Shown: positions 16,413 to 48,081 of the stretch, piece after piece
Layout of the letters: every line of letters starts with the position of its first letter
How positions within the stretch are numbered: the stretch's first letter is position 1
Source: Pseudomonas sp. BGr12
GTDB lineage: Bacteria > Pseudomonadota > Gammaproteobacteria > Pseudomonadales > Pseudomonadaceae
Direction of reading: 5' to 3'
Assembly (NCBI RefSeq): GCF_030272895.1
Contig: NZ_JALRNF010000017.1
Coordinates: 1 to 64,000, forward strand
DNA: 64,000 nucleotides
Position numbers and translations under genes: made by a program
Notes under the pieces: model-generated
Database searches by the model: none
Seen by the model: the letters and a program-made list of their open reading frames with translations, nothing else
What the model was told of the DNA's origin: nothing

Positions 16413-19400
16413 TTGACAAAGCGTAAACAGGTTGCAATTGTTGGTTGTTCTTTTCGTTTCCCTGGCTCCACCACCAGCAGTTTCTGGCAAAACCTGATGA
16501 CCGGGCGCGACCTGGTGACCCAGGTCGACGCCTCGCGCTGGGAGCATGCCGAGTTCCTGCACCCGGACAAAGCCAATCCGGCTACCAGCTACACCTTCGC
16601 TGCCGGCAGCCTGGGTGACGTCAGCGCTTTCGATGCCGGGTTCTTCAATATCTCGCCGCGCGAAGCGGCAGTGATGGACCCGCAGCAACGCCTGTTGCTG
16701 GAAATGTGCTGGGAAACCTTCGAGAACGCCGGGGTCAAGCCGTCGAGCCTGCGTGGCAGCAACTGCGGCGTGTACCTGGGGATCGCCAGTGTCGAGCAGG
16801 CCTATCGCCTGGTCGAAGACATGGCCTCGATCGATGGCGCCACCGCCACCGGCAACACCATGAGCATCGCCGCCAACCGCTTGTCGTTCTTCTACGACCT
16901 GCGCGGTCCGAGCATGGCCATCGACACCGCCTGTTCGTCGTCGCTGGTGGCCTTTCACCAGGCCTGCCAGGCGATTCTCAGTGGCGATATCGACCAGGCG
17001 GTGACCGGCGGCATCAGCCTGCACATGCACCCGTTCGGTTTCATGATCTTCGCCAAGGCGTCGATGTTGTCGCGCACCGGGCGTTGCCACAGCTTCGATG
17101 AGAGCGGTGATGGCTACGCCCGTTCCGAAGGCGGTGGACTGTTCCTGCTCAAGGACTACGACCAGGCCCTGGCCGATGGCAACCCGATCCTGGCGGTGGT
17201 GGCGGCCAGTGCGGTCAATACCGATGGCCGCAAGTCCAGCCTGACCCTGCCCAACGCCGAGGCCCAGGCCGCCTTGCTCAAAGGCGCCTATGCCAAGGCC
17301 GGCATCGACCCTGCGCAACTCGATTACCTCGAAGCCCATGGCACCGGCACCGCGGTCGGTGACCCGGTCGAGACCCGTGCCATCGGAGAGACCCTGGGCC
17401 AGGCCCGTGGCGCCGGCAATCCGCTGCCGATCGGCTCGATCAAGAGCAACCTCGGTCACCTGGAAGCCGCCTCCGGCGTTGCCGGCCTGATGAAGGCCCT
17501 CAACTGCCTGGCCGAGCGCAAGATTCCGGCGACCATCGGGGTCGAAGCGCTTAACCCCAACATCGACTTTGTCGACCTCAACCTGGACGTGGTCACCGAG
17601 CCGCGCACGCTCAAGCCTGAAGGGCAGCTGACGGTCGGCATCAACTCGTTCGGCTTTGGTGGCGCCAACGCCCACGTCATTTTGCAGAGCGCCGAAGCGC
17701 AGCCTGTGCCGGCCGCGCCGAACCAGGCGCGCCGACTGCCGTTGCTGCTCAGCGCCAAGGATGCCGCAGGCCTGCGCGCCACGGCCGAGCGCTTTGCCGA
17801 CTACCTGGCCGCGCATCCCGAAGCCAGCTACTACGACGTCGCCTACCAGGCCATGTTCCGTCGCGATGCCCATCCGCATCGCCTGTTGTTGATCAGCGCC
17901 GACCCGGCCGAATCCGCCCAGGCGCTGGCCGACTATGCCCAGGACCCGAGCCTCAGCGAGCTGAGTTCGGTGCTTGAAGCCGGGCAGGCGCTGGACCAGG
18001 TCCAGGGCCCGGTCTTCGTCTATTCCGGCAACGGTTCGCAGTGGCAAGGCATGGGCCGGGCGATGCTCGGTGATCCACTGTTCGAGGCAGCGGTCGCTGA
18101 AGTCGATGCGCTGTTCCAGCCATTGGCGGGCTACTCGCTGCGTGCCGAACTGATGGGTGAGAACGGCGACGATCGCTATGCGCGCACCGAGATTGCCCAG
18201 CCGGCACTGTTCGCCTTGCAGGTGGCCGTCACCCGTGTACTGGCGGCGCAGGGCGTGCATCCCCAGGCGGTGATCGGCCATAGCGTTGGCGAAGTGGCCG
18301 CGGCCTGGGCCTGCGGTGCCCTGAGCCTGGAGGACGCCACCCAGGTGATCTTCCACCGCAGCCGCCTGCAGGGCCTGACCCGTGGCAACGGCCAGATGGC
18401 CGCCGTGGGCCTGTCGGCTGAAGCCACCGCTGCCGTACTGGCCGAACTGGGCCTGGACGAGCGTCTGGTGATCGCTGGCGAAAACAGCGCCCGCGGTGCC
18501 ACCGTGGCAGGCTGTGTCGAGGCCTTGGGCGAGCTGGAGCAGGTGCTCGGCGAGCGCCAGGTCTTCGCCCGTCGCTTGGCCCTGGACTACGCCTTCCATT
18601 CGCCGGCGATGAACCCGATCGAACAGCAGGTCATCAGCGACCTGGCGCACATCCGCCCGCGCACCGGCCGTATTCCGTTCTACTCCACCGTGGTCGGTGG
18701 CCAACTCGATGGCGAGCGACTGGACAGCCGCTACTGGTGGCAGAACATCCGCCTGCCGGTGCTGTTCCAGGGTGCGATGGACGCGCTGGTGGGGCAGGGC
18801 TGCAACCTGTTCGTCGAAGTCGGCCCGCACCCGATCCTGCGCAGCTACGTCACCGATGCCCTGGCCCAGCGCGAGGTCGCCGGCCAGGTGATCGCCACCT
18901 TGCTGCGCAAGGACCACAGCCCAGTGCTGCTGGAGCGTTGCCTGGCCAAGCTGCTGATCGCCGGTGTCGAGCCGGACTGGCAGGCGCATTTCCCGGTGGC
19001 CGGTGCCAACCTGCGCCTGCCCAACTACGCCTGGCAGCGCGATCACTTCCAGTTGCCGGTCAGCTCCGAGTCGTCCGGCCTGTTGCAGCGCGAGCGCGTG
19101 CATCCCTTGCTCGGCTATGCGCTGGCCGACCGTGCCCTGACCTGGGAAAACCGTCTGGATACCCAGCTGTTCCCGACCCTGGGCGATCACAAGGTCGGCG
19201 AGTCGGTACTGTTCCCCGGCGCCGGCTTCACCGAACTGGCCCTGGCTGTGGCCTTGTTGCACCAGCCAGGCGAGTTCGTCGACATCGAAGAACTGGAGAT
19301 TCACAACCCGTTGCTGCTCGGCAGCGAAGGCAGCAAGAAGATTCGCGTCAGCGTCGAGGAGGCCGATGGCACCTTGCGCATCGTCTCGCGCACCCTGGCC

Positions 19401-22400
19401 CAGCGCGAAGAGTGGGTACAGCATGTGGTCGCGCGCCTGCCCGGCGAGGCACGCGGGGTGATGCTCGGCGGTCGTGCCCCGGCATTGCCACAGCGCCCGG
19501 CGGATTTCAGCGGCGAGCAGCACCTGGCACTGACCGCGGCGGTCGGCCTGAACTACGGGCCGGCCTACCAGGCTGTGTCGGCTGTCTGGGTGGAACCGGC
19601 GCACATTCTGGCCCGGTTGAGTGTACCGGCTGCGATCAGCGCCGAGCTGACGTCGCTGCACCTGCACCCGGCCTTGCTCGACGGTGCCTTCCAGTTGATC
19701 ACCGAACTGCTGGTGAGCCAGCCGGGCCGCAACAAGGGCCTGGCGTTCATTCCGGTCAAGTTCGGACGCATCGCCTTTGCTCGCGACGGGGGCGTGCCGT
19801 GCCTGGCCGAAGTGCGGCAGCTCAAGCGCACCGAGCATTCGTTGCTGGTCGATTTCGTCCTCTATGACGCCCGCGGCGAAGCGGTGCTGTGCATCAAGGA
19901 GGCGCGCTTCCGTGGCGTGCGCCTGCAGCGCGATCGCTCCGGCGACATCAAGCACCTGGCCCATGTCGGCGTCGCCGCCCCGGGTCAGGTCGTGCCGGTG
20001 CTGCGTGAAGCCCTGCTCGATACGGCGCTGGCCGATCATCTGCAGGGCCTGGCCGATGAGCCGGTGCAGGTGCGCTACCTCAACGAGGTCGAGCCGCTGC
20101 TCGATGCCTTGTGTTCAAGTTTCGTGCTCGACCTGATCGAGCAGGCCGGTGGCCGCCTGAGCGCCGAACAGGTTGCATTGTGGTCGCAACAGGCGACCGT
20201 GCCGGCTGAGTTCCTCGCGACCTTGCTGCGCCATGGCCTGGAAGACGGCAGCCTCGACCGTGATGCCGCCGGTGGCTGGCAGCTTGCCGATGCCGGCGAG
20301 CGCCCGACGTCCGAGGCGATCTGGCAGGAGCTGTTCCAGAGCTACCCGGAACACTTCCAGCTGATTCATTCGGTGGGCCGTATCGGGCGCCACTTGCAGG
20401 CGCTGCTCGACGGTCGCCAGTCACTTGAAACCCTGCTGCCGCGGGAAACCAGCGGCGCCAGCCTGACCCGCCTGGTGCTGGGTGCCAGTGGCCAGCAACG
20501 CCTGCTCGCCGGCCTGCGCCAGACCCTGGCCCAACGCCTGGATGCATTGCCGGCCGGGCAGCGCCTGCGGGTGCTGGAGCTCGGCTTTGGCGGGCCGTCC
20601 TTTGCCGAGTCGCTGTACGCCGCGGTCGATTTCGACCGGGTGGACTACAGCTATTGCGTGCAAGAGCCGGAGCTGGCGCAGATGCTGTGCGACGAGTGCC
20701 CGGCGCTGGATATCCTCGGCTTCGATCAACTGGCCGCTGCCGGTCACTACGACTGGGTACTGCTGCCGACCGACCTGGCGGCGCTGGACAGCATTGGCAC
20801 CGCCTTGCGCCAGGTGGCAACCCAGCTCAACCCCCATGGGCAACTGGCGTTGCTGGCACAGCACCCGGCGCGCTGGGCCGATTTCGTCTTCGGTGCCCAG
20901 GCCGACTGGTGGCTGGCCGGCCCCGAGCAGGCCTTGTCGCGCCAGCAGCGTCCAGGCTTCTGGCAGCACGAGCTGCAACGCCATGGCCTGTCCCTGACCC
21001 ATACCCTCGAAGCCCTGCCAGGCAATGGCTGTGGCAGTTACCTGATGCTTGCCGGCAAGCTGGCGGGCAGCGCTGCGCCGCTGGCGCCAGTCGCCTGCCA
21101 GCACTGGGCCTTGCTGGCTGAGGCCGGGCAGGGCGCCGCCGAGCAGTTGGCCAGTCGCCTGCGCGAGCAGGGCCAGCAGGTCAGCCTGCTGGTGCCGGGT
21201 GATGCCCGGTCGCTGGCGCAGCAACTGGCCGCGCTGGATCAGCCGCCGCAGCAACTCGTGCACCTGGCCGGCTTCGATGCCGCCCGGGGCCTGGATGCCC
21301 AGGGCGAGCGCTGCATGCAGGCCGCGGCGCTGGTCCAGGCGTGTGAATCGCTGGGCCTGGCCCCGCACTGCTGGCTGCTGACCCGTGGCGCTGCCGCTCA
21401 CCTGTACAGCGGCGACAGCGCACAGCAGGTGGATGCGATTGCCGACGCCGCGTTCTGGGGCTTTGGCCGCACCCTGGCGAACGAATCCGCCAGTTGCCCG
21501 ATCCGTCTGCTCGACCTGGCCCATGGCGCATCGATCGACAGCCTGGTCCCGGCCCTGCTGCAGGCCGACGCCGAAAACGAAATGGCCATCAGCGCCGACG
21601 GTTTGCGTTACGTACCGCGCCTGCGCGTGCTGGCGGACAAGCATGACACCATTGACGCGGCAGACCAGCGCATCAGTCTGGGCTTCGACCTGCCCGGCCA
21701 GTTGCGCAACCTGCGCTGGGAAGTGCGTGAGCCGCGCCTGCCGGCGGCGGACGAGCTGGATATCGCCGTGCGGGCCACCGGCCTGAACTTCCGCGACGTG
21801 ATGTTCGCCCTCGGCTTGCTGTCCGACGAAGCCATCGAGAACGGCTTCTCCGGCCCGACGCTGGGCTTTGAATTCGCAGGCGTAGTGCAGGGCAAGGGCG
21901 CCGAGGTACTGGGCGATTTCGCCCCGGGCGACCGTGTGGTCGGCTTCGGCCCGTGCAGCTTCGCCAACCGCCTGGTGACCAACGCCAACGCCGTGGCGCG
22001 GATTCCCGACGGCATGTCGTTCGAAGCGGCGGCGACCATCCCCAGTACCTTCTTCACCGTCTACTACGCCCTGCATTACCTGGCGCGCCTGGAGCCGGGC
22101 GAGAAAGTGCTGATCCACGGCGCCGCCGGTGGCGTGGGTATCGCCGCGATCCAGGTGGCCAAGTGGTGTGGCGCCGAGATCTACGCCACCGCCGGCAGCG
22201 ACGAGAAGCGCGACTTCCTGCGCCTGCTGGGTGTCGACAAAGTGTTCGATTCACGCTCCCTCGCCTACGCCGACGAAGTCCTGGCAATCACCGGCGGACG
22301 GGGTGTCGACGTGGTGCTCAACTCCCTGGCGGGCGAAGCGATCAACCGCAACCTGCGGGTGCTCAAGCCGTTCGGTCGCTTCCTCGAACTGGGCAAGCGC

Positions 22401-23930
22401 GACTTCTACCAGAACACGCGCATCGGCCTGCGGCCGTTCCGCAACAACATCAGCTACTTCGGCATCGACGCCGACCAGTTGATGAGCGAGCGTCCGCAAC
22501 TGACCCGGCGCCTGTTCGGGCAGATGATGGATTTGTTCGAGCAAGGCATCCTGCACCCGCTGCCGTTCCGAGAATTCGATGCCAACCAGGTGGTCGAGGC
22601 GTTCCGCTACATGCAGCAGGCGCGGCAGATCGGCAAGATCGTGGTCACCTACGGCAACCCGATCGAGCACCTGGTGGACACCCGCGAGCAGCCGCAGCAA
22701 CAGCTGCAGCTCGATGGCCAGGCGACCTACCTGGTCACCGGCGGCCTCGGTGGTTTCGGCCTGCGCACGGCGCAGTGGCTGGTGGACAAGGGCGCGCGAC
22801 ACCTGGTGCTGCTCGGTCGTCGCGGCCCGGCCAGTGTCGAGGCGCAGCCGAGCCTGGCCGCCTGGCAGGCCCAGGGTATCGATGTGCAGGCGCTGGCTTG
22901 CGATATCACCGACCCGCAGCAACTGCGCGCCGTGTTCGAACACATCGCCGCCACGCCTTACCCGTTGCGCGGCCTGGTGCACGCCGCGACGGTGATCGAC
23001 GACGGCCTGATCCGCAACCTCGATGCCGGGCAGTTGCAGCGTGTGCTGGAGCCCAAGGCCAAGGGCGCGCAGTACCTGCATGAACTGACCTGCGGGCTGG
23101 CGCTGGACTTCTTCGTGATGTTCTCCTCGGCCACCACCCTGTTCGGCAACCCGGGACAGGCCAACTACGTGGCGGCCAACCACTGGCTCGAAGCCCTGGC
23201 CCGCCATCGTCGCGCCCAAGGCCTGGCGGCCACGGCGGTGCTTTGGGGCGCCATCGATGATGTCGGCTTCCTGGCCCGTAACGAGCAGATCAAGGATGCC
23301 CTGCAAAGCCGCATGGGTGGCGCAGCGCTGCGCGCCGACGTGGCCCTGGCGCACCTGGAGCAGATGCTACTGAGCGGCGACGACGGCATCGGCGTGCTGG
23401 AGCTGGAATGGAAAGCCTTGTCGCGCTTCCTGCCCAGCGCCGCCACCCCGCGCTTTATCGAGCTGGTCCGCGCCCACGGTGGCGAGCAGGACGATGAGGG
23501 CGATGCCCAGGACATCCAGCGCTTGCTCGCCGAGCTGGATGACGAACAGGTGCTGGAGCGTTTCGTCGAACTGCTCAAGCATGAGGTCTGTGAAATCCTG
23601 CGCCTGCCGGCAGCCCGGCTGGATACCCAGCGGCCGCTGCAAGAACTGGGACTGGACTCGCTGATGAGTGTCGAGCTGGTGGTGGCGCTGGAAGAACGCT
23701 TCGGCATTCGCCTGCCGGTCATGGAGCTCAGCGAAAGCTCCAGCATCGACAAGCTCAGCGTGCGCATCCTCGAACTGCTGCGTGGCGAAGCGGCTGAGGC
23801 ACCCGCATCGACCTCGTTGACCGCGAACGTGCTGGCCCGCCACGGCAGTGAACTGAGCCCGGAACAAATCGCCGAGCTGAACGCCGAGCTGGCGGACACG
23901 GCTGCGGCACCTGACCGTTTGATTGAATGA
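16413..23930 (+). CDS. Highly reducing type I polyketide synthase (KS-AT-DH-psiMT-psiKR-ER-KR-ACP)
   Basis: A single-module reducing PKS of 2505 residues. KS: C174 in DTACSSS, H309 in EAHGTGT, H349 in NLGHLE. AT: S624 in GHSVGE. DH: H926 in HKVGESVLFP and D1090 in LLDGAF. Around 1385-1440 there is a methyltransferase-like region whose SAM loop reads LELGFGGPSF instead of the usual GxGTG, then a structural KR half. ER: GLNFRDVMFALG and HGAAGGVGIAA near 1897. KR: VTGGLGGFG near 2105 with FSSAT and NYVAAN active-site segments. ACP: phosphopantetheine S2416 in LGLDSLMS. There is no loading module and no thioesterase. The start is TTG 16413 with AAGGA 7 nt upstream; the track-length frame further upstream lacks an SD. 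The layout predicts iterative synthesis of a saturated, fatty-acid-like chain. The next gene, an alpha-oxoamine synthase, supplies a release step. Confidence 0.93.
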   Translation: MTKRKQVAIVGCSFRFPGSTTSSFWQNLMTGRDLVTQVDASRWEHAEFLHPDKANPATSYTFAAGSLGDVSAFDAGFFNISPREAAVMDPQQRLLLEMCWETFENAGVKPSSLRGSNCGVYLGIASVEQAYRLVEDMASIDGATATGNTMSIAANRLSFFYDLRGPSMAIDTACSSSLVAFHQACQAILSGDIDQAVTGGISLHMHPFGFMIFAKASMLSRTGRCHSFDESGDGYARSEGGGLFLLKDYDQALADGNPILAVVAASAVNTDGRKSSLTLPNAEAQAALLKGAYAKAGIDPAQLDYLEAHGTGTAVGDPVETRAIGETLGQARGAGNPLPIGSIKSNLGHLEAASGVAGLMKALNCLAERKIPATIGVEALNPNIDFVDLNLDVVTEPRTLKPEGQLTVGINSFGFGGANAHVILQSAEAQPVPAAPNQARRLPLLLSAKDAAGLRATAERFADYLAAHPEASYYDVAYQAMFRRDAHPHRLLLISADPAESAQALADYAQDPSLSELSSVLEAGQALDQVQGPVFVYSGNGSQWQGMGRAMLGDPLFEAAVAEVDALFQPLAGYSLRAELMGENGDDRYARTEIAQPALFALQVAVTRVLAAQGVHPQAVIGHSVGEVAAAWACGALSLEDATQVIFHRSRLQGLTRGNGQMAAVGLSAEATAAVLAELGLDERLVIAGENSARGATVAGCVEALGELEQVLGERQVFARRLALDYAFHSPAMNPIEQQVISDLAHIRPRTGRIPFYSTVVGGQLDGERLDSRYWWQNIRLPVLFQGAMDALVGQGCNLFVEVGPHPILRSYVTDALAQREVAGQVIATLLRKDHSPVLLERCLAKLLIAGVEPDWQAHFPVAGANLRLPNYAWQRDHFQLPVSSESSGLLQRERVHPLLGYALADRALTWENRLDTQLFPTLGDHKVGESVLFPGAGFTELALAVALLHQPGEFVDIEELEIHNPLLLGSEGSKKIRVSVEEADGTLRIVSRTLAQREEWVQHVVARLPGEARGVMLGGRAPALPQRPADFSGEQHLALTAAVGLNYGPAYQAVSAVWVEPAHILARLSVPAAISAELTSLHLHPALLDGAFQLITELLVSQPGRNKGLAFIPVKFGRIAFARDGGVPCLAEVRQLKRTEHSLLVDFVLYDARGEAVLCIKEARFRGVRLQRDRSGDIKHLAHVGVAAPGQVVPVLREALLDTALADHLQGLADEPVQVRYLNEVEPLLDALCSSFVLDLIEQAGGRLSAEQVALWSQQATVPAEFLATLLRHGLEDGSLDRDAAGGWQLADAGERPTSEAIWQELFQSYPEHFQLIHSVGRIGRHLQALLDGRQSLETLLPRETSGASLTRLVLGASGQQRLLAGLRQTLAQRLDALPAGQRLRVLELGFGGPSFAESLYAAVDFDRVDYSYCVQEPELAQMLCDECPALDILGFDQLAAAGHYDWVLLPTDLAALDSIGTALRQVATQLNPHGQLALLAQHPARWADFVFGAQADWWLAGPEQALSRQQRPGFWQHELQRHGLSLTHTLEALPGNGCGSYLMLAGKLAGSAAPLAPVACQHWALLAEAGQGAAEQLASRLREQGQQVSLLVPGDARSLAQQLAALDQPPQQLVHLAGFDAARGLDAQGERCMQAAALVQACESLGLAPHCWLLTRGAAAHLYSGDSAQQVDAIADAAFWGFGRTLANESASCPIRLLDLAHGASIDSLVPALLQADAENEMAISADGLRYVPRLRVLADKHDTIDAADQRISLGFDLPGQLRNLRWEVREPRLPAADELDIAVRATGLNFRDVMFALGLLSDEAIENGFSGPTLGFEFAGVVQGKGAEVLGDFAPGDRVVGFGPCSFANRLVTNANAVARIPDGMSFEAAATIPSTFFTVYYALHYLARLEPGEKVLIHGAAGGVGIAAIQVAKWCGAEIYATAGSDEKRDFLRLLGVDKVFDSRSLAYADEVLAITGGRGVDVVLNSLAGEAINRNLRVLKPFGRFLELGKRDFYQNTRIGLRPFRNNISYFGIDADQLMSERPQLTRRLFGQMMDLFEQGILHPLPFREFDANQVVEAFRYMQQARQIGKIVVTYGNPIEHLVDTREQPQQQLQLDGQATYLVTGGLGGFGLRTAQWLVDKGARHLVLLGRRGPASVEAQPSLAAWQAQGIDVQALACDITDPQQLRAVFEHIAATPYPLRGLVHAATVIDDGLIRNLDAGQLQRVLEPKAKGAQYLHELTCGLALDFFVMFSSATTLFGNPGQANYVAANHWLEALARHRRAQGLAATAVLWGAIDDVGFLARNEQIKDALQSRMGGAALRADVALAHLEQMLLSGDDGIGVLELEWKALSRFLPSAATPRFIELVRAHGGEQDDEGDAQDIQRLLAELDDEQVLERFVELLKHEVCEILRLPAARLDTQRPLQELGLDSLMSVELVVALEERFGIRLPVMELSESSSIDKLSVRILELLRGEAAEAPASTSLTANVLARHGSELSPEQIAELNAELADTAAAPDRLIE

Positions 23931-26982: not shown

Positions 26983-29105
<2,123 letters not shown>

Positions 29106-39026: not shown

Positions 39027-39881
<855 letters not shown>

Positions 39882-39898: not shown

Positions 39899-40657
39899 TT
39901 ATACGTCAGGACTCCAGAGGGACAATCCTTCAGAAGAGTCAAAACTCCATGGTTGCTGGACGGACAAGTGGAGTTTGTCCCAAACAATATCTGTTTTAGT
40001 GACTTTTGCTGGGGTGCCGACAGCAATGCAGTGCTCGGGTATTTCACCCTTAACTACTGACCGATAGCCAATCACGCTTCCTTTGCCAATGTTAGACCCG
40101 GAAAGTACCGCCACGTGTGGGCCAAGCCACACATGGTCTCCTATGGTTACGGAGCGACTATGATTCAGTCTCTGTCCAGTTGAACGTGAAAATATTGGGT
40201 GCGCGTCATCGCTTCGTATATCAATATCTACTGCAAACATGCAGTCGTTACCTATTGTAACGGATGTCCCTTCGGCGGCTGATATGTTCATGGAGCCTGT
40301 GGGTTTCAGGCGAGATCCCACAATAATAGTGCTATTTAAGCCGGTTCTAACTCTTCCGCGGAGTTCGGTGTCTTTTTTTAAGATGACAGTGCCGCCATCT
40401 GCCTGCATTGTAATGTTTACATCTTTAAGTGTAACACCCTCTTCAATTTCAATTCGGCAGTTCTTTGCGCCGAAAAAAATTGTCAGCCTTCCTTTGCTCG
40501 TAGCTGTACCGATGATCGAATTTCCATTTTCGTCATTATAATCGGTCGCTTCGTTCAGTACAGGCATGCGGTTCTCTGCATCAGGTTTCAGTTGGACCGT
40601 CTTAATATTTCGTTTTGATGTCTTTGTCAATAGGCGACGGATTTTTGACGTCAACAT
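39899..40657 (-). CDS. Hexapeptide-repeat acyltransferase, capsule-associated
   Basis: A 252-residue left-handed beta-helix protein. After an N-terminal basic segment there are irregular beta-helix turns (IEIEEGVTLKDVNITMQADGGTVILKKDTELRGRV). These are followed by the acyltransferase turns (VTIGDHVWLGPHVAVLSGSNIGKGSVIGYRSVVKGEIPEHCIAVGTPAKV). SDDAHPIFS contains the likely catalytic histidine. It probably O-acetylates a sugar of the capsule repeat unit. Base composition is markedly AT-richer than kdsA beside it, marking the boundary of a transferred serotype block. The C-terminal 30 residues are unique. Confidence 0.82.
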   Translation of the reverse strand: MLTSKIRRLLTKTSKRNIKTVQLKPDAENRMPVLNEATDYNDENGNSIIGTATSKGRLTIFFGAKNCRIEIEEGVTLKDVNITMQADGGTVILKKDTELRGRVRTGLNSTIIVGSRLKPTGSMNISAAEGTSVTIGNDCMFAVDIDIRSDDAHPIFSRSTGQRLNHSRSVTIGDHVWLGPHVAVLSGSNIGKGSVIGYRSVVKGEIPEHCIAVGTPAKVTKTDIVWDKLHLSVQQPWSFDSSEGLSLWSPDV

Positions 40658-40737: not shown

Positions 40738-43700
40738 TTAGGCCTGGGATGAAATATCGAACTTATTGTTGCCAAAAAATATTTTCAAATAAGGCATCTT
40801 AAGTGTAAGCAGCCTTAGCTTGAGTTTCTGGTTGTTGGGCATTAGCTGCTGAGCTTTAATCAAGGCCTCAATAGCGGATTTTCGGTCGTTTGCTAACAGA
40901 TAGGCCTCTGAAGCCGCGCGCAATAGATTTGGCTTTTCGGGCTTCGCTTCAAAAGCTATGTTGAACGCAGACGCGGCCTCGGAAAATTTTTGTTCTTTGA
41001 AGAGTCTGCGAGCAGATGCTTCTAGGTCCACGTACTGTTTGTGGATGTCGGTCCTGGCTTTTTTCTTGGTTTCAAGTTTTGCCTGGTTTTGTTTTTCGAG
41101 AGCCGACTGTTTAAGTGCGCTGAGCCCATTTTTTAGCGCTTGAGTACCTTCTTTCCAAAGTGTTGGGCTAACATCCAGGCGGTTCTTTGGCGGGACGAAA
41201 TATCGTAGTGGGCGGCCAGCAAAGTAGTTTTCGATAGTAATGCCGGAAAATACCTCGGAGTCTCGATACATTGGAGATTCTAGCATCGAGAACAGGCGGC
41301 CACATACATCGTCATACATCCACAGATGGCTGATCTGTATTGAGTTGAAGCACTCTTGAATGGTGTCAAGAAGGTCTTTTGTATACTGCAGCGAGCCGGA
41401 ATGTATTTCTTGATTAAAGATGGCGCGGGCGCGTTCCTTTCCATCAAGGAATGTTGGCGAGAGTTGGTCGGACTCTTTTTGGAACCTTAGGAAGGTTCCT
41501 TTGTTGTTGAGGAACAGAGATTCGATAATAAGTGCATATCGAATGTATTTTTGTGTTCTGTCAGAAGCGCTGATTCTGTCTTTGTAGAAACCAGTGCCAA
41601 TATGCTGGCCGGGTACCGCAGATAGCGTGCTTTCAACGCCATCGTAAGTGCAGAAGTAGTAACCGCGAGTCTGCTTAAGATTACGAGCTTTGGCCAGGCT
41701 GGCTTGAAGCGATCCGTTGTGGCCGATGTCAACGAGTCCGAGCGGAGCGTCAGACTCGATAAAGCCAACTCCATCCAAGTACTCGGAATATAGTTCGCGT
41801 TCTTCGGCAGCATTTTCCAAGATAGCGGTAAGCAGTTCTCGAGATTTTAGCCATGCTTCCAAAAGTGCGGGGGCGTTGTTCTCGCTGGTTTTTTCGATGC
41901 TGCGCTCAAGCTCCTCAAGGCCGAAAGAGTTTAGCGCTTTGGTTGTAAGCCCGAATCGTAGCGAAATATATTGGTCTAGGCTCGATTTATTTGGGTTCTT
42001 TGCATACTCTTTGGTTACTAGATCAATTTCTTCAAGAATGTCATTTTCGTTTCGAAGCGAAACGACTCGGGTGGATCGCCGAGAGGCCAGTAAATATTGG
42101 GTTCGGATTTTGTTTCCGGGAATTCGGCTTAACAGTTCGTCCGCCATCTTCTTGACAATTTCACCGTCTCTTGCCAAGAAATAAAGTGTTTCAACTCCAT
42201 CAATCCGAGCTTTTTCAATAGTCCATGCGGCGAACGCGAGCATCATATCGCCCACGATGTTATAGCCAAGGTTGTAAGGCTTGCCGCTAGTATATCCTGC
42301 GCCGTTGGTGATCGATGGATATCCAGCAGTGTTTCGCTGAATTAGGCCATTTTTTATTGGGCCATAGGGGCCTGTTGAGCGAAGGAATTGTGGGGTGCTA
42401 CCTTTAAATTGGTCGTGATTGGAAATTACCCAGCTCGCATTGATTTTGTGTGCATGGGCATTAGTAATGTCGGCTTTGTAGTTGTCGCCGATATGCAATA
42501 ATTTATTCTTTTCTTGTGCAAGCAGCACTTCGTATAGTCCGCCAGCTTCCTTGGTGGCGTCATAAGCGCTTGATGCATATATTTCATCGGGGAAAATGCT
42601 TGCTGCAGCAAGAAACTCTCTGATTTGGTCCTCAGAGAAATAGGTGTCAGATGTAATAATCACCCGTTTGCCGCGAGCTTGAGCGTATTCTAGAGCCATC
42701 TTCCCGATTGTACGGGCTTCAAGAAGGCCTTTTTCAACTTCAATTTCAAACTCGTAAAGCTTTGCTGTAGTGGCAGGGTCAAGCTTTAGAATTTTTCCGA
42801 TTATTTCGTAACGCTCTGTCAAAGGGACTTCATGTTTTGTCGAATGCTTTTTCGCTTCACGACGTGCACGTACGAAGTCCTCCTGGATGATTCCAAACTC
42901 AGTGTGGGCTCTATGACCTGTTAAGGAAATAACATCGCCAGGGACCCAGGTCTTTCTTTGGAGAAGCGTGTCGAAAACATCAAACGAAATAGTCTCATGT
43001 TGATCGATAAGGGCTTCGAGCTTCTTAAGGGATGGCGGATTGGCTTGCAGGCGCTCGGAGGTTACTTTGGTTGACTTGGATTCGGGTTGATCCTTGCGCT
43101 TAACACTTTTTGATTTTGTTGAGTCGACGAAGGACGCATGGTTTTTATCAAAAACATGGGTGTTGTAGTAAAGCGCCAGCATGTCACGATAGTTTGATGA
43201 GGGGTTCAAAAAATCGTAGTCAGAGGATATTTTTGTTGTTGGGAGGCTGCCACTTAAAATTGCCTGCCAGAACCCAGGAGAGTGAAGTTTCGAAAATACT
43301 GAGTAGTATCCAGAAGGAGTATTTCTGTCAAAGATTTCTAGAACTGGACGATACAAGTAACTAAAACTTTTCCCAAAGTACTTGGATTCATACATTAGAG
43401 ACGAGGAAACGCCGGTTACGTGCTCGATGGATTCGGTGCAGAGCAGTTTGTAGCCAGGTTCAGTTGTAATGCTTGTGTTGTCATGTGAAAGAACAAATTC
43501 AAGCTGTGCAGAGTCATCACCCTTGATCATAGGGTGGCGTGAGAAATACACATGACTGAAACGTTTTGTGAGCTCGGTGAACTCATCTTTAAAATTAAGC
43601 ACGTTAAGCATTGTGCCGTCACGGCAAACTGCTTTGTCGGTCAAAGTCTGGCCAACAAAGAGCGCTGAGTTTGCCTTCAGTGCATTATCTAGACTGTTTT

Positions 43701-44223
43701 TGTATTTATCCCACCCCATGTAGGACTGGATGCGCAGTTTGTCTGCATAGAGTGTGTAGACATCATCTTTGAGGTGAAAGGATTCTAGAGCGTAGTTAAT
43801 CTTTTTTACATTAGATCGAAATGCAAAGAAATTATCGTCTAAAAAGCGAATCGGATGAAGCCAAATGTCAATATACGAGATATTGGCTCTTGACAAGACG
43901 GCTCGGGTTTCTTCCGAAAGTTCATAGCCAATAAGAATTGTGTTTTGGAGTGGTGCTTTAATTAGCTCCAGTGACTTTTCTGAGATTGACTGCTCATTAA
44001 AGTGGAAGTGAGACTCGGACTCGTTAAGGATTATTCCGCTTTTCGCGAAAAAATCTCGACGACTGAAGGTGTTTTGCTGGTCGCTCAAAAAGTCTTCAGG
44101 CTTTACTTTAAGTGCGCGACCTAGTGATGTGTTCAGGATTGTGGAAAGCCAGCGCAAATGGTATCGCTGGGTTTCTGGACGAGTCATCAAAAAATCGCAG
44201 CACAAAAATATTTTAGCAAACAT
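40738..44223 (-). CDS. Large capsule enzyme: glycosyltransferase-like region, HAD domain, TPR tail
   Basis: 1161 residues. Residues about 1-390 resemble GT-B capsule/phosphopolymer transferases (ILIGYELSEETRAVLSRANISYIDIWLHP, FSHVYFSRHPMIKGDD, ESIEHVTGVSSSLMYESKYFGK), but the family is not certain. A HAD hydrolase begins at D415/D418 (ISFDVFDTLLQ) with HIGDNYKADI. This middle part matches the 'predicted HAD hydrolase' type often found in surface-glycan loci. TPR-like helices (FNIAFEAKPEKPNLLRAASEAYLLAND) end the protein from about 1065. It is AT-rich, and ATG 44223 is preferred to GTG 44235. As the only large unassigned gene between the Kdo genes and exporter, it is the best candidate for the capsule polymerase. 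Confidence 0.7.
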   Translation of the reverse strand: MFAKIFLCCDFLMTRPETQRYHLRWLSTILNTSLGRALKVKPEDFLSDQQNTFSRRDFFAKSGIILNESESHFHFNEQSISEKSLELIKAPLQNTILIGYELSEETRAVLSRANISYIDIWLHPIRFLDDNFFAFRSNVKKINYALESFHLKDDVYTLYADKLRIQSYMGWDKYKNSLDNALKANSALFVGQTLTDKAVCRDGTMLNVLNFKDEFTELTKRFSHVYFSRHPMIKGDDSAQLEFVLSHDNTSITTEPGYKLLCTESIEHVTGVSSSLMYESKYFGKSFSYLYRPVLEIFDRNTPSGYYSVFSKLHSPGFWQAILSGSLPTTKISSDYDFLNPSSNYRDMLALYYNTHVFDKNHASFVDSTKSKSVKRKDQPESKSTKVTSERLQANPPSLKKLEALIDQHETISFDVFDTLLQRKTWVPGDVISLTGHRAHTEFGIIQEDFVRARREAKKHSTKHEVPLTERYEIIGKILKLDPATTAKLYEFEIEVEKGLLEARTIGKMALEYAQARGKRVIITSDTYFSEDQIREFLAAASIFPDEIYASSAYDATKEAGGLYEVLLAQEKNKLLHIGDNYKADITNAHAHKINASWVISNHDQFKGSTPQFLRSTGPYGPIKNGLIQRNTAGYPSITNGAGYTSGKPYNLGYNIVGDMMLAFAAWTIEKARIDGVETLYFLARDGEIVKKMADELLSRIPGNKIRTQYLLASRRSTRVVSLRNENDILEEIDLVTKEYAKNPNKSSLDQYISLRFGLTTKALNSFGLEELERSIEKTSENNAPALLEAWLKSRELLTAILENAAEERELYSEYLDGVGFIESDAPLGLVDIGHNGSLQASLAKARNLKQTRGYYFCTYDGVESTLSAVPGQHIGTGFYKDRISASDRTQKYIRYALIIESLFLNNKGTFLRFQKESDQLSPTFLDGKERARAIFNQEIHSGSLQYTKDLLDTIQECFNSIQISHLWMYDDVCGRLFSMLESPMYRDSEVFSGITIENYFAGRPLRYFVPPKNRLDVSPTLWKEGTQALKNGLSALKQSALEKQNQAKLETKKKARTDIHKQYVDLEASARRLFKEQKFSEAASAFNIAFEAKPEKPNLLRAASEAYLLANDRKSAIEALIKAQQLMPNNQKLKLRLLTLKMPYLKIFFGNNKFDISSQA

Positions 44224-44363
44224 TGTCGGTCTCACTGATTACAGCATGAGCATATATGCTTATGCTTTGCGTTCATTCCATAAACAGCAGGGCGATCCCT
44301 GCTATACAGTGTGCCTAGAAATCTGTTTTTGTAGTTTTTGTTCCCAGCACGCCTCAGTCTGTT

Positions 44364-45449
44364 CTATTTGATAGCGCCAGTCACATTACCCACCAACATG
44401 GTCTGTACGATCGGCGCGATGATTTTTTGCCATTCGTACACAGCTGCGTTGGTCACATAGATGGTGTCATCCGGCTTGATCATGACCTGGCGAGCGTAGA
44501 AAACCGCCGCCGGATCACGCATGTCCAGACGCAGCACCGTAGGCTTGGCGTTGGCGCCTTCGCCCATGCGGAACACGAATACGCCCTCAGGGTTGGCATT
44601 CGCTTCGCGCAGGCCACCGACGCTACCCAGTGCATCGAGCAGGCTGGTGTTCTGCGATGGCAGGTCCTTCAGGCCTGGCTCGCCCACGGCACCCATGGCC
44701 ACGAAGCGCTGGCGCGCACGGTCCAGCACCACTTCCGAGTTCGGACGCAGGACCATGTTGTTGCCGGCCAGAACATCTTCGTAGTTGAACTGCTGGACAT
44801 CGCTGCCGGTACGTACGGTGACGTTGACCAGGTGCGGTTCCAGCACCGGGCCACCGGCCTGGTTGACCGCATCGAGCAGGGTCAGCGGGCCTTGCAGGGT
44901 GCTGAAGCGGCCTGGAGCCTTGACCGCGCCGGCCACCAGCACCGAGCCCGACAGGTCGCCGACCAGCTCGACGTGGGTCTGCACGTCGGTGGTCACGCCC
45001 TTGAGCTTGTTGCGGATCATGGTCTCGACCTGGCTCAGGGTCATGCCGGCGACGAACTGGCGACCCACGTAGGGCAGGGAGATGGTGCCCTGGTCGTCGA
45101 TGCGGGTCTTGAGCTGGGTGCCGCCGGTGGTCAGCGGGGCGAACAGCGCCGAGCCTTCCGGGGCGTTGTCGGTGATCAGCACATTGAGGGTGTCACCAGC
45201 CATCAGCCGCGCGGTCGGGGCCACCGGCTTGGCGATGGTTGCCTGCGCCGGGCGCACTTCGCCGCGCATGTACGGGGCGATGGTGTTGGCGTTGATCTCG
45301 ACCAGGTTGTAGGGCTGGTTCTTGGCTTCGATATCACCCTTGTAAGGGCCGGCGCCGGACAGGGTGCCGCCGCATCCGCTCAGGCCCAGGGTCGCGAGGG
45401 CCAGGGCTGCCAGTTTGAACTTGTGGGAAACGACAAGGGATTTAATCAC
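44364..45449 (-). CDS. kpsD: Capsule export outer-membrane lipoprotein (Wza/KpsD-type OPX)
   Basis: A 361-residue polysaccharide-export protein. It is a lipoprotein with lipobox LSG-C (C26). A Poly_export domain follows (TARLMAGDTLNVLITD ... IDDQGTISLPYVGRQFVAGMTLSQVETMI), then SLBB-like repeats (GSVLVAGAVKAPGRFSTLQGPLTLLDAVNQAGG; RFVAMGAVGEPGLKDLPSQNTSLLDALGSVGGL). It would form the outer-membrane translocon for capsule, docking on the KpsE adaptor. The start is GTG 45449, overlapping the kpsE stop by 8 nt (GTGATTAA) with GAGGA upstream. It is shorter than E. coli KpsD (about 560), more like the CtrA/Wza type. Confidence 0.9.
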   Translation of the reverse strand: MIKSLVVSHKFKLAALALATLGLSGCGGTLSGAGPYKGDIEAKNQPYNLVEINANTIAPYMRGEVRPAQATIAKPVAPTARLMAGDTLNVLITDNAPEGSALFAPLTTGGTQLKTRIDDQGTISLPYVGRQFVAGMTLSQVETMIRNKLKGVTTDVQTHVELVGDLSGSVLVAGAVKAPGRFSTLQGPLTLLDAVNQAGGPVLEPHLVNVTVRTGSDVQQFNYEDVLAGNNMVLRPNSEVVLDRARQRFVAMGAVGEPGLKDLPSQNTSLLDALGSVGGLREANANPEGVFVFRMGEGANAKPTVLRLDMRDPAAVFYARQVMIKPDDTIYVTNAAVYEWQKIIAPIVQTMLVGNVTGAIK

Positions 45450-46548
45450 GGTGATCCTCGATGGAAGCCAGGATGAAGCGGGTAATGCCGTACAGCATCA
45501 GCAGGCCTAGCAGGATGGTTGCCAGGTTGTACAGACGCTCTGGGTACAGGGCCAGTTGTGGGGTGTTCGGGCTGACGACGGTCACCAGGGTGCGGATCTT
45601 CTTGCTGGCCTCGATACGGGCGTTGTCGAGGGCGGCGACCGCGGTCTTGTAGCTTTCTTCGGCAATGCCGGCGTCCAGGGTCAGTTGCTGGTAGCGCGAG
45701 GCGACCACGTTCAACTGCGAACCGTTGGGCGAGGACACCAACAGGCGCTTTTCCTTGGCCAGCTGCTGGGTGATGGCACTGACCTTCTGGATCTGCTGTT
45801 TGACCTGTGGCGCATCGGCGCGCAGCTTGAACTGCATCTCGGTGAGAACGGCCTGTTCCTTGGTGTACTGGCCTTCGAGGTCGGCAATGATGCTGGCGCG
45901 GCTCTGTGCGGTGTTGCCACCGTCCAGGACCTTGTTGATGTTCTGGAAGTCGAGCAGTTCGGTCTTGCGCTCGGCGTAGTTGATGCGTGCGGTTTCCAGT
46001 TCACCTTGGGCGAACTTCATCTGCTCGCGGGCGATGCTGTGGCTGACTTCGTTGACGAAGTGTTCGCTGGCCTTGAGGATGGTGCGCAGCATCTGCTCCG
46101 ACAGTTCAGGGGTGAAGGCTTGCACCTCTACACGCAGCAGGCCGGTGGTTTCGTCGTAGTGCGCCGAGACCATGCGCTGGTAGTACTCGAGCAGGTCTTC
46201 GCGCTCGGCGTCCTTGTCCAGCCAGAAGAACACGTCGCTGCGCTGGGCGGCGTACTGTTCGATCCAGTGCAGGCGCTCTTCGAGCAGCAGCATCATGTCG
46301 GTCGACACGATGTACTCGCGCAGGTACAGGGTCTCTTCACGGGAAGCCGGGTTGTTACCGGTCAGCAGGGTGGCCAGGCCTGGCATCTGCGCACCCGGGT
46401 TGCCGCCATCCTGGCGCACCACCACCTGGGCGGAGCTGACATAGCGGTCGACGGCGAATACAGCGTAATACACGGCCGCCAGGATCAGTGGTAAGACCAC
46501 CATGGCCATCGCCAGGCGCCAGCCCTTTTTTGTACCCGTACTGCTCAT
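45442..46548 (-). CDS. kpsE: Capsule export inner-membrane periplasmic adaptor (PCP-3)
   Basis: A 368-residue KpsE/CtrB-type adaptor. It has a transmembrane helix near the N-terminus (MAMVVLPLILAAVYYAVF), a long periplasmic part with coiled-coil heptads (about 150-290, including EQMKFAQGELETARINYAERKTELLDFQ), a PNTPQLALYPER proline motif and a C-terminal membrane helix. It links the KpsMT exporter to KpsD. ATG 46548 (MSSTGTKKGW) is chosen because the frame further upstream is out-of-frame kpsT sequence. It follows kpsT by about 50 nt. Confidence 0.92.
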   Translation of the reverse strand: MSSTGTKKGWRLAMAMVVLPLILAAVYYAVFAVDRYVSSAQVVVRQDGGNPGAQMPGLATLLTGNNPASREETLYLREYIVSTDMMLLLEERLHWIEQYAAQRSDVFFWLDKDAEREDLLEYYQRMVSAHYDETTGLLRVEVQAFTPELSEQMLRTILKASEHFVNEVSHSIAREQMKFAQGELETARINYAERKTELLDFQNINKVLDGGNTAQSRASIIADLEGQYTKEQAVLTEMQFKLRADAPQVKQQIQKVSAITQQLAKEKRLLVSSPNGSQLNVVASRYQQLTLDAGIAEESYKTAVAALDNARIEASKKIRTLVTVVSPNTPQLALYPERLYNLATILLGLLMLYGITRFILASIEDHRD

Positions 46549-46597
46549 ATGTGATGCATCCTTGAAGTGGAACGGTGCTGCGAAATAGGGGGTGCGC

Positions 46598-47251
46598 TCA
46601 GCTGTTGTAGGCCTTGATGCCTTCGGCGACGTCGTCGAAGACCTGGATGCCGCCATCGCGTACCAGCAGGACGATGTCGCAGAGCTTTTCGATTTCCGGC
46701 ATGGAGTGCGAGACCAGGACGACGTTGGACTTCTGCAGTTTTTCCTGGAAGACCTCGGCGCACTTGCGCTTGAACTGCGCATCGCCCACCGACATCACTT
46801 CGTCGATCAGGTAGTAATCGAAATCGAAGGCCATGCTCAGGCCGAAGGCCACCCGCGAGCGCATCCCGGAGGAGTAGGTCTTGATCGGCTCGTCGATCCA
46901 GTCGCCGATCTCGGCGAACTCCTGGACGTAGCGGACCTTCTCGCGCATGGCTTCGCCTTCGGCGCCATAGACGCGGCAGACGAACTTGATGTTGTCGCGG
47001 CCGGTCATGCTGCCCTGGAAACCGCCGGTCAGGCCCACGGGCCAGGAAATGCTGCGGTCGGTGACGATGGCGCCGGAATCGGGGACGTCGGCGCCGCCGA
47101 GCAGGCGCATCAGGGTCGATTTGCCCGCGCCGTTGCGGCCGATCAGGCCGATGTTCTTGCCCGGGGGAATCGCCAGCGACAGGTTGCGAAAGACATACCG
47201 ACGGCCGTTGGGGGTCAGGTAGGACTTGGTGACGTTTTTAAGTTCGAACAC
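46598..47251 (-). CDS. kpsT: Capsule ABC exporter ATPase
   Basis: A 217-residue ABC ATPase of the KpsT/CtrD group. It has Walker A IGRNGAGKSTLM, Walker B DYYLIDEVMSVGD, and the variant signature YSSGMRSRVAF, which is characteristic of polysaccharide exporters. With KpsM it moves lipid-linked capsule across the inner membrane. It is 11 nt downstream of kpsM. Confidence 0.95.
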   Translation of the reverse strand: MFELKNVTKSYLTPNGRRYVFRNLSLAIPPGKNIGLIGRNGAGKSTLMRLLGGADVPDSGAIVTDRSISWPVGLTGGFQGSMTGRDNIKFVCRVYGAEGEAMREKVRYVQEFAEIGDWIDEPIKTYSSGMRSRVAFGLSMAFDFDYYLIDEVMSVGDAQFKRKCAEVFQEKLQKSNVVLVSHSMPEIEKLCDIVLLVRDGGIQVFDDVAEGIKAYNS

Positions 47252-47262: not shown

Positions 47263-48081
47263 TTAGCCGTTCTTGGTGGAAATCAAGTGCAGGCGGCGGG
47301 CGCGGTAGCTACCCAGGGCGATGAACAGCAACACGATGGTCAGCGAAATCACATAGGTCTCGGACACGCCATCGACCGGGGTGTAGTGCGGCAGTACTTC
47401 GGCGCGAATCAGCTCGATCAGGTGCAGGAACGGATTGAGCAGCAGCACGGGCATCATCGCTTGCGGCAGGTAAGCCGCCGGCACCAGCACGCCGGAGATG
47501 AAGTAGAGCGGGAAGAAGGCCATGCGGATGACCAGCTTCAGGCTGGGCAGGGCGTGGGTGATCAATGCCAGCAGCATGCCCAGGCCAAAGGCGAACAACA
47601 GGCCCAGGGCCAGGGTCGCGACCCACTGCAGCGGGCTGTGCACCGACATGTCGAAGCCGTACCAGGCAAAGCCGAACACCAGGATGGCGTAGACCGTGAC
47701 GCTGATGCAGGTTTCCACCAGTACCCGGGCCACGTAGGTGTCCAGCGGCTTGATCTGCTTGTAGCCGAACAGCGAACGGTTCTCGCGCAGGCTGTCCATC
47801 AGGCGCAGGGCAGTGTTGCGGTAGAGCAGGAAGGGGGCCAGGCCGACCAGGACGAACACCGGGTATTCGACGCCGGCCACGGTACGGCCGCGAATCAGCG
47901 TGAATAGCAGGGTGAAGATCAGCAGGTGGCAGATCGGCTCGATCAGGGTCCAGACCGCTCCCATGCGGCGGTCGCCGACACGCGCGCGGGCTTCGCGCAG
48001 AACAAGGGCAAAGATGACCGATTTCTGGATCTGGAAGGAGGAGCGAGGCTTCAAGATATTTACCGCAAAGCAAAGCAGCAC
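47263..48081 (-). CDS. kpsM: Capsule ABC exporter permease
   Basis: An ABC-2-type permease of 272 residues at most, with six membrane helices. The N-terminal amphipathic segment FQIQKSVIFALVLREARARVGDRRMGAVWTLIEP is diagnostic for KpsM/CtrC. The start is uncertain: GTG 48081 is the longest. A TTG about 10 codons later (before KPRSSFQ) would give the usual family N-terminus, and neither has a strong Shine-Dalgarno. It is the first gene of the minus-strand operon kpsM-T-E-D that may read on into the serotype and Kdo genes. Confidence 0.92.
   Translation of the reverse strand: MLLCFAVNILKPRSSFQIQKSVIFALVLREARARVGDRRMGAVWTLIEPICHLLIFTLLFTLIRGRTVAGVEYPVFVLVGLAPFLLYRNTALRLMDSLRENRSLFGYKQIKPLDTYVARVLVETCISVTVYAILVFGFAWYGFDMSVHSPLQWVATLALGLLFAFGLGMLLALITHALPSLKLVIRMAFFPLYFISGVLVPAAYLPQAMMPVLLLNPFLHLIELIRAEVLPHYTPVDGVSETYVISLTIVLLFIALGSYRARRLHLISTKNG

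What the first reader, a model, noticed from the sequence alone, without database searches (positions are those of the whole stretch)
16413..48081. Capsule locus interlaced with a polyketide/sphingoid-like lipid pathway
A complete group-2 capsule set (kpsMTED, kpsC, kpsS, kpsF, kdsA, kdsB-kdsC) shares a region with a reducing PKS, an alpha-oxoamine synthase, an SDR, a PhyH dioxygenase, a GNAT and a membrane phosphotransferase. Four of these lie in the same overlapping operon as kpsC and kpsS. Seen: gene content and stop-start overlaps. Known: KpsS/KpsC build poly-Kdo on a lipid, and oxoamine synthases release acyl thioesters as aminoketones. Inferred: a PKS-made amino-lipid is the anchor of, or is conjugated to, the capsule instead of lyso-phosphatidylglycerol. 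Similar PKS-capsule associations may have been noted in other Gammaproteobacteria; I cannot check novelty.
Basis: partly seen in the sequence, partly recalled or inferred. Interest (0 to 1): 0.92.

Follow-up and report, generated by a model that had tools for sequence, protein, structure and literature searches.

The report
Capsule locus with lipid-building polyketide synthase
A Pseudomonas carries a sugar-capsule locus together with a small enzyme line that probably builds a special lipid to hold the capsule; the gene set is of a known kind (rkp-1/wcb), and the patterns found here suggest a specific lipid structure that can be tested.

Summary
Observation confirmed. 16413-48081 holds a full ABC-transporter capsule set plus a reducing PKS, an alpha-oxoamine synthase (AOS), an SDR and a membrane phosphotransferase. 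A second KpsC was overlooked. It is not a new kind: the set matches rkp-1 of Sinorhizobium and wcb of Burkholderia, for which a lipid carrier or anchor is already in print. New here: (1) in 298 sampled genomes of the phylum the AOS co-occurs with KpsC/KpsS (11 of 15 AOS genomes; 1.7 expected). (2) KpsS, which puts the first Kdo on the lipid, splits: 12 sampled KpsS from strong-AOS genomes plus the window's form one clade; 22 from genomes without the AOS and an E. coli KpsS lie outside. KpsC, which only extends Kdo, is intermixed. (3) The membrane enzyme is closest to phosphoglycerol transferases (GacH, LtaP, LtaS); its charge pattern predicts a cytoplasmic catalytic domain. Best model: PKS, AOS and SDR make an amino-alcohol lipid; the LtaS-like enzyme adds glycerol phosphate, giving a lyso-phosphatidylglycerol mimic on which this KpsS starts the capsule. 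Against it: 3 of 10 strong-AOS KpsC/KpsS genomes show no such enzyme. The chemistry is inferred throughout. PhyH seems tied to the capsule rather than to the PKS.

The parts
16413..23930 (+). Type I reducing polyketide synthase (KS-AT-DH-degenerate MT-ER-KR-ACP, no thioesterase hit)
   Evidence: Pfam; best PDB relative mycocerosic acid synthase; MT-like stretch weakly like CurJ MT; motifs; RkpA/WcbR homologue
23953..25305 (+). Alpha-oxoamine synthase (RkpG/WcbT homologue), predicted PKS release enzyme
   Evidence: Pfam; NCBIfam; PDB; 52% to S. meliloti rkp-1 gene, 59% to Caballeronia gene
25936..26979 (-). PhyH-family dioxygenase
   Evidence: Pfam; distribution
26983..29109 (-). Second KpsC-like beta-Kdo transferase (KpsC2); start uncertain
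   Evidence: Pfam Capsule_synth, two stretches; KpsC tree; starts
29106..29690 (-). GNAT acyl/acetyltransferase
   Evidence: Pfam; start uncertain (TTG 29690 or GTG 29684)
29687..31210 (-). Five-TM LtaS/GacH-type predicted phosphoglycerol transferase (RkpI/WcbQ homologue)
   Evidence: Pfam; PDB profile; AlphaFold model; fold search; topology
31203..31979 (-). Short-chain dehydrogenase/reductase (RkpH/WcbP homologue)
   Evidence: Pfam; start
31976..33292 (-). KpsS-like Kdo transferase of the AOS-linked clade
   Evidence: Pfam; NCBIfam; trees
33232..35253 (-). KpsC1, two-module Kdo transferase
   Evidence: Pfam; tree
35433..36473 (-). APH-family phosphotransferase, role unknown
   Evidence: Pfam
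36715..37647 (+). KpsF/KdsD arabinose-5-phosphate isomerase
   Evidence: Pfam SIS+CBS
37709..39001 (-). KdsB-KdsC fusion (CMP-Kdo supply)
   Evidence: Pfam CTP_transf_3 + HAD
39027..39869 (-). KdsA
   Evidence: Pfam DAHP_synth_1
39899..40657 (-). Hexapeptide acyltransferase
   Evidence: Pfam
40738..44235 (-). Low-GC 1165-aa protein with a HAD segment, perhaps the serotype-specific polymer enzyme
   Evidence: No Pfam hit; HAD-IA; GC 0.44-0.46; only 26% like its positional counterpart in L084
44364..45449 (-). KpsD-like outer-membrane export protein
   Evidence: Pfam Poly_export, SLBB
45442..46560 (-). KpsE-like co-polymerase (start approximate)
   Evidence: Pfam Wzz, below its curated cut-off; homologues in kps loci
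46598..47251 (-). KpsT ATPase
   Evidence: Pfam ABC_tran
47263..48081 (-). KpsM permease
   Evidence: Pfam ABC2_membrane

Best explanation
This is an rkp-1/wcb-type, PKS-dependent capsule locus. The PKS builds a saturated acyl chain on its ACP; the AOS releases it by condensation with an amino acid to an aminoketone; the SDR reduces that to a sphingoid-like amino alcohol; the five-TM LtaS/GacH-like enzyme, predicted to face the cytoplasm, moves glycerol phosphate from phosphatidylglycerol onto it. The product is a lyso-PG mimic with the glycerol head that KpsS needs. A KpsS lineage particular to these systems adds the first Kdo, KpsC extends it, the polymer is made on it and KpsMTED exports it. 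Shown: gene content, homology, co-occurrence, KpsS/KpsC contrast, enzyme-family assignment. Inferred: every chemical step, the order, the cytoplasmic orientation, and which amino acid is used.
Against: No chemistry was seen. Of the 10 strong-AOS genomes with KpsC/KpsS, 3 (G231, G326, G329) have no phosphotransferase of this family: none at E 1e-15 by sequence, none at 1e-5 by profile (which had no positive control genome), none in the fetched loci; their KpsS lie in the clade all the same, so the glycerol-phosphate step cannot be general as drawn. S. meliloti 1021, which has rkp-1, is reported to make poly-Kdo on a 'phospholipid anchor' (title of Fraysse 2005 seen only in reference lists); if that is ordinary phospholipid, the model fails there. 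LtaS-type enzymes are known to work outside the membrane (recalled); the inverted orientation rests on a charge rule with short, unequal loops. Three Paraburkholderia genomes (of L057, L062, L070) have PKS-AOS-phosphotransferase and KpsMTED but no KpsC/KpsS at E 1e-10, and 11 of 43 AOS genomes searched have none. Sampled genomes are not independent: 5 of the 10 strong-AOS ones with KpsC/KpsS are one genus, 14 of the 22 outside KpsS one family. In the 30-row tree the KpsS split has weak support (59/80), and KpsC too is somewhat clustered (27 of 500 shuffles as low). A distant homologue (26%, residues 44-450) is in a genome without AOS and KpsC/KpsS (G353). The AOS misses the NCBIfam cut-offs for serine palmitoyltransferase and BioF, so its substrate is open.
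Confidence: 0.42

Rival explanations
1. The PKS-AOS-SDR product is the capsule's anchor lipid, but its head group is not glycerol phosphate or is added by another enzyme; the LtaS-like protein does something else (for example modifies lipid or polymer outside).
For: KpsS of G231, G326 and G329, which lack the phosphotransferase, still lie in the AOS-linked clade; LtaS-type enzymes usually act outside (recalled).
Against: The enzyme lies within 3 kb of KpsS in 7 of 7 sampled genomes that have it and its distances follow KpsS best.
Confidence: 0.2
2. Anchor exchange: KpsS and KpsC start the capsule on ordinary PG; after export the LtaS-like enzyme, facing the periplasm as its relatives do, moves the capsule with its glycerol phosphate from PG to the PKS-made amino alcohol, which becomes the final anchor.
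For: Fits the usual outward orientation of LtaS-type enzymes and PG as their donor (recalled); phosphotransferase closest to GacH/LtaS.
Against: Does not explain why KpsS, but not KpsC, segregates with the AOS; charge pattern predicts the opposite orientation.
Confidence: 0.12
3. The PKS-AOS lipid is an export cofactor or a decoration, not the covalent anchor; the anchor stays ordinary lyso-PG.
For: PMC4881576 (passage) describes rkp-1 as making a lipid carrier involved in secretion; reported phospholipid anchor of S. meliloti 1021 poly-Kdo (title only).
Against: The KpsS lineage tracks the AOS although KpsS is only known to meet the anchor lipid and Kdo.
Confidence: 0.18
4. The KpsS split reflects one block of genes inherited together, without a change of KpsS acceptor.
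For: Of 30 AOS loci with KpsS in reach, 28 also have the phosphotransferase and 27 the SDR.
Against: KpsC is as close (it overlaps kpsS in the window) yet mixes; KpsS lies on another contig than PKS-AOS in 6 of 10 sampled genomes.
Confidence: 0.15

Closest known systems
rkp-1 region of Sinorhizobium meliloti (rkpA, G, H, I, J)
   Same: PKS, AOS, SDR, alkaline-phosphatase-superfamily membrane protein and KpsS-like gene in one stretch, with KpsF and an export gene next to it; lipid carrier or anchor proposed (passages of PMC3557214, PMC4881576)
   Different: PKS and AOS on the same strand as SDR, membrane protein and KpsS-like gene; no GNAT, PhyH or KpsC2 hit in the fetched stretch
wcb capsule cluster of Burkholderia (WcbT, WcbS, WcbR, WcbQ, WcbP, WcbO)
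   Same: AONS-like, type I PKS, sulfatase-like membrane protein, SDR and KpsS listed in order (table passage of PMC4275268; single letters of some Wcb names recalled); Caballeronia relative L085 aligns at 40-59%
   Different: LpxC-like deacetylase between PKS and AOS; the window has a GNAT in its operon
E. coli group 2 capsule (kpsFEDUCS-MT)
   Same: KpsMTED export, KpsC, KpsS, CMP-Kdo supply (gene names of E. coli recalled)
   Different: An E. coli KpsS lies outside the window's KpsS clade; window KpsS 279 bits against an equivalog cut-off of 600; PKS/AOS/phosphotransferase not part of it (recalled)
GacH / LtaP / LtaS phosphoglycerol transferases
   Same: Fold, and the Thr, Glu, Asp, His and Arg positions aligned with them kept (residue roles recalled)
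   Different: In a capsule operon; predicted cytoplasmic catalytic domain
Fumonisin-type fungal sphinganine-analogue pathways
   Same: Reducing PKS plus an oxoamine synthase that releases the chain (works like; recalled, search listing only)
   Different: Secreted metabolites of fungi; no capsule, not a family member

Membership tests
rkp-1/wcb PKS-dependent capsule module | RkpA/WcbR-type single-module reducing PKS | tested here: met
   best piece 43% over 798 columns to the S. meliloti gene, 42% over 2551 columns to the Caballeronia gene
rkp-1/wcb PKS-dependent capsule module | AOS (RkpG/WcbT), SDR (RkpH/WcbP), membrane phosphotransferase (RkpI/WcbQ), KpsS-like (RkpJ/WcbO) | tested here: met
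   AOS 52%, SDR 29%, phosphotransferase 25% (E 1e-28) to L083; KpsS 39%
rkp-1/wcb PKS-dependent capsule module | Mutation abolishes or alters capsule | not testable with these tools
   needs mutants
Group 2-type ABC-transporter capsule | KpsM, T, E, D, C, S and CMP-Kdo genes | tested here: met
Group 2-type ABC-transporter capsule | (lyso)PG-poly-Kdo terminus | not testable with these tools
   needs chemistry
KpsS equivalog NF050054 | score over cut-off 600 | tested here: not met
   278.6 bits. Over the same domain the AOS-linked rows tried score 201-230; of seven rows without AOS four score 257-294 and three 152-216
Phosphoglycerol transferase (GacH/LtaS branch) | fold and catalytic residues | tested here: met
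Phosphoglycerol transferase (GacH/LtaS branch) | transfers glycerol phosphate from PG | not testable with these tools
   needs assay
Phosphoglycerol transferase (GacH/LtaS branch) | catalytic domain outside the membrane | tested here: inconclusive
   charge rule predicts inside; no experiment
Serine palmitoyltransferase | NCBIfam equivalog cut-off | tested here: not met
   292 of 640, 262 of 500 and 199 of 670 bits
BioF (8-amino-7-oxononanoate synthase) | NCBIfam equivalog cut-off | tested here: not met
   330 of 426 bits; the genome has one other gene of the AOS family (36%)

The most novel reading that the evidence does not exclude
A widespread class of Gram-negative capsules is held by a PKS-made, sphingoid-like phosphoglycerol lipid: a lyso-PG mimic finished on the cytoplasmic side by an LtaS-fold enzyme turned round in the membrane, and recognised by its own KpsS lineage.
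Probability: 0.28. Interest if true: 0.82.

Novelty: new member of a known kind. Interest (0 to 1): 0.58.

Why it matters
The lipid made by rkp-1/wcb PKS genes is called a carrier or anchor in the papers read here, without a structure. The KpsS/KpsC contrast and the phosphoglycerol-transferase assignment turn this into one predicted structure that mass spectrometry and an in vitro KpsS assay can test. If right, capsules of plant symbionts, environmental bacteria and some pathogens would use a sphingoid anchor rather than lyso-PG, made by a possibly inverted LtaS-fold enzyme, and KpsS sequence would predict anchor type.

Tried and rejected
One search used a KpsS query translated in the wrong frame (one stop inside); its KpsS column is void and was redone. 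PhyH as part of the lipid pathway: not upheld as a rule; 6 of 299 genomes have it, all 6 have KpsC/KpsS, 2 of the 6 lack the AOS, and in one of these it sits beside KpsC. The PhyH model was poor (mean pLDDT 61), so no fold search was made with it. PhyH by sequence against PDB gave only weak hits (best E 0.007).

PKS methylation: the MT-like stretch shows only a broken motif (motif roles recalled), so a methyl-branched chain was not assumed. No phosphoethanolamine transferase passed E 1e-3 in the profile search, but EptA, EptC and MCR share the fold at lower rank; this does not exclude such an activity.

Topology: the 24 family rows used helix limits of the model, the controls hydropathy alone. 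By hydropathy 17 of 19 five-TM family members agreed; L033 and L040 did not, and five members with four or six predicted TMs were split; there 11 close Pseudomonas loci and members outside 480-560 aa were left out by choice. Controls dropped because hydropathy gave no clear five TMs or starts were unsure, nine in all: OpgB (1 against 6, agreeing with the kept controls), L168-L171 (long N-terminal tails put the count the other way), L175, L176, L177, L180.

Trees: G203 was left out of the KpsS trees (KpsC hits only). G132 (weak AOS, no PKS hit at the locus) was labelled apart, fell outside the clade, and is absent. The named KpsS rows were 20 chosen loci, taken by similarity to the window's KpsS. 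'Without the AOS' means no match at E 1e-95. One search dropped G208 (phosphotransferase outside the locus). Whole genomes were searched for 44 of the 80 AOS loci, 43 held.

Literature: ten searches, judged from their listings. None listed a paper proposing a phosphoglycerol-sphingoid capsule anchor or a KpsS split by PKS-AOS. Kiss 1997, Mueller 2009 and Fraysse 2005 are not held; Petrovics 1993 was seen only as a reference title.
Full report
What is there. The window lies in a draft genome of 280 contigs (G000, contig 86); the nearest AOS relatives are in P. putida 31753 and P. vranovensis, 93% identity, so the host is a Pseudomonas. The coordinates and gene content of the finding are right. 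On the minus strand kpsC1, kpsS, SDR, an alkaline-phosphatase-superfamily membrane enzyme, GNAT, a second kpsC and PhyH run with overlaps or near-contact; PKS and AOS are on the plus strand and converge on them; then APH, kpsF, kdsB-kdsC, kdsA, a hexapeptide transferase, a low-GC 1165-aa protein, kpsD, E, T, M. The locus is accessory: of 25 genomes of the genus (own included) only the own one has KpsC/KpsS at E 1e-30; at E 1e-100 the AOS search finds the own gene and one 47% match; the other genome of the same species has neither. On a mobilizable plasmid of Pseudomonas sp. TMW 2.1634 the order from PKS to KpsD recurs, 64-92% identical except GNAT, APH (50-53%) and the serotype genes.

It is a known kind. 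The S. meliloti rkp-1 stretch shows PKS, AOS, SDR, an unannotated homologue of the phosphotransferase, and a KpsS-like gene next to KpsF. A B. pseudomallei table lists 8-amino-7-oxononanoate synthase, LpxC-like deacetylase, type I PKS WcbR, sulfatase-like membrane protein, SDR and KpsS as neighbours (PMC4275268, passage). [quoted passage not shown] PMC4881576 (passage) says their products make and modify a specific lipid carrier for secretion; PMC3908369 (abstract and passages) groups wcb and rkp clusters.

Does the PKS-AOS pair belong to capsules? In 80 AOS loci of other species (at most 10 kb either side): PKS in 76, phosphotransferase in 59, KpsC or KpsS in 32, any kps gene in 44. The four without PKS are planctomycete records whose AOS lies in a longer open frame. 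In 43 whole genomes (44 of the 80 loci asked, one not held), 32 have KpsC/KpsS: 22 within 40 kb of the AOS on the same contig, 9 on another contig, 1 over 1 Mb away; 11 have none. A sample not chosen by the AOS, 298 genomes of the phylum without the own one, gives AOS (E 1e-95) in 15, KpsC/KpsS (E 1e-30) in 33, both in 11, Fisher p 5.8e-9; of 11 with AOS at E 1e-130, 10 have KpsC/KpsS (this stricter cut was set after seeing the list). Five of those ten are one genus, so p overstates independence. 22 of the 33 KpsC/KpsS genomes lack the AOS: the PKS is an option, not a general part, of these capsules.

The new test. KpsS puts the first Kdo on the lipid; KpsC only extends Kdo (PMC10148158, PMC7694667, passages). 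If the PKS product is the lipid, KpsS should follow the AOS and KpsC need not. In the tree of sampled genomes, 12 KpsS from 10 AOS genomes plus the window's form one clade (98/95; 98% of bootstrap trees), and 22 KpsS from 21 genomes without the AOS plus E. coli and Citrobacter KpsS lie outside (14 of the 22 are one family). Adding 20 chosen named loci keeps the clade whole (33 rows, 99/98), with Gamma-, Beta- and Alphaproteobacteria, Desulfobulbus and a Verrucomicrobium; the one KpsS from a genome with only a weak AOS lies outside. One family (f31) has members on both sides, so this is not taxonomy alone. On the same 30 genomes or loci KpsS needs 1 change of label (support only 59/80) and KpsC 5; one clade is rejected for KpsC (p-AU 7e-8), though KpsC too is somewhat clustered (27 of 500 shuffles as low). 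In a 35-row KpsC tree 6 changes are needed (15 of 500). KpsC overlaps KpsS in the window, so linkage alone does not explain the contrast. Over 18 loci the distance matrices agree best for phosphotransferase-KpsS (r 0.90) and AOS-phosphotransferase (0.85), then AOS-KpsS 0.78, KpsS-KpsC 0.75, phosphotransferase-KpsC 0.74, AOS-KpsC 0.62; every pair exceeds all 2000 shuffles.

Topology. With the model's helices mapped onto the alignment, lysine and arginine lie on the catalytic side in 24 of 24 (4-8 against 0-3), the reverse of E. coli EptA and EptB, two own-genome enzymes and four LtaS-like proteins (8 of 8 five-TM controls; nine others dropped as told in Tried and rejected). The loops compared are short and unequal in length, the two sets were cut by different methods, and conserved arginines may bind lipid heads, so this is a prediction only.

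The PKS and AOS. The PKS keeps KS, AT (GHSVGE, YAFH), ER, KR and ACP motifs and Pfam DH domains, its best solved relative is mycocerosic acid synthase, and it has no thioesterase hit. Its MT-like stretch looks degenerate. A saturated, unbranched chain is the likeliest product (inference). In Planktothrix the same domain order continues from ACP into an AOS in one protein, which supports release by the AOS. The AOS is below the cut-offs for BioF, glycine C-acetyltransferase and serine palmitoyltransferase: the amino acid is unknown. The SDR is an unspecific reductase match; 3-keto reduction is inferred from the pathway.

What does not fit neatly. Three Paraburkholderia genomes have PKS, AOS, phosphotransferase and KpsMTED but no KpsC/KpsS at E 1e-10, so the lipid module may serve a capsule without KpsS; this supports a lipid role but limits the KpsS argument. 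Three other genomes have the AOS and the KpsS clade without the phosphotransferase, so the head group may be made otherwise. PhyH occurs in 6 of 299 genomes, all with KpsC/KpsS, two without the AOS. The 2005 title on a phospholipid anchor in S. meliloti 1021 may mean ordinary phospholipid. GNAT, APH and KpsC2 have no assigned step.

Verdict. A real, coherent locus of a known kind; the anchor idea is strengthened by an independent evolutionary test and sharpened to a structure whose last step is the least secure. Interest 0.58: ordinary as gene content, but it makes an old question directly testable.

Noticed in passing
window 25281-26038: 300-base direct repeat (99%), spaced 458 bases, copies the 3' part of PhyH between AOS and PhyH; a truncated PhyH fragment (93% over 92 aa) results.
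   Followed up: partly
L084 (NZ_CP016850.1, pL21564-1): Same order from PKS to KpsD on a mobilizable Pseudomonas plasmid from poultry meat, so the module can probably move as a unit.
   Followed up: partly
L057, L062, L070: Paraburkholderia with PKS-AOS-phosphotransferase and KpsMTED but no KpsC/KpsS in the genome at E 1e-10; what starts the polymer there is unknown.
   Followed up: partly
G231, G326, G329 (L134, L135, L137, L138, L139): Strong AOS and AOS-clade KpsS but no LtaS-like phosphotransferase found.
   Followed up: partly
L085:19033-19959: LpxC-like deacetylase between PKS and AOS in Caballeronia, as in the Burkholderia wcb list; the window has a GNAT in its operon.
   Followed up: no
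L075, L076, L077, L079, L081, L087: AOS in longer open frames or annotated proteins: 1132-1199 aa in four planctomycete records, 1400 aa (cut by the contig end) in Phormidesmis, and a Streptomyces plasmid protein with an MMPL transporter and an LCP protein nearby.
   Followed up: no
G108:C102: PKS-AOS with an LtaS-like gene about 9 kb away and no KpsC/KpsS at E 1e-30 in the genome: perhaps another PKS phosphoglycerol lipid.
   Followed up: no
window 40738-44235: 1165-aa low-GC protein without Pfam domain, HAD segment only; its plasmid counterpart is 26% identical.
   Followed up: no
window 26983-29109 and 33232-35253: Two full KpsC-like proteins of different KpsC lineages in one operon; in a genome without the AOS (G187) a KpsC2-like gene sits next to a PhyH gene.
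   Followed up: partly
window 10671-14786: Two acyltransferase-3 genes, an alpha/beta hydrolase, an FMN reductase and a low-molecular-weight phosphatase-like gene beside the locus.
   Followed up: no
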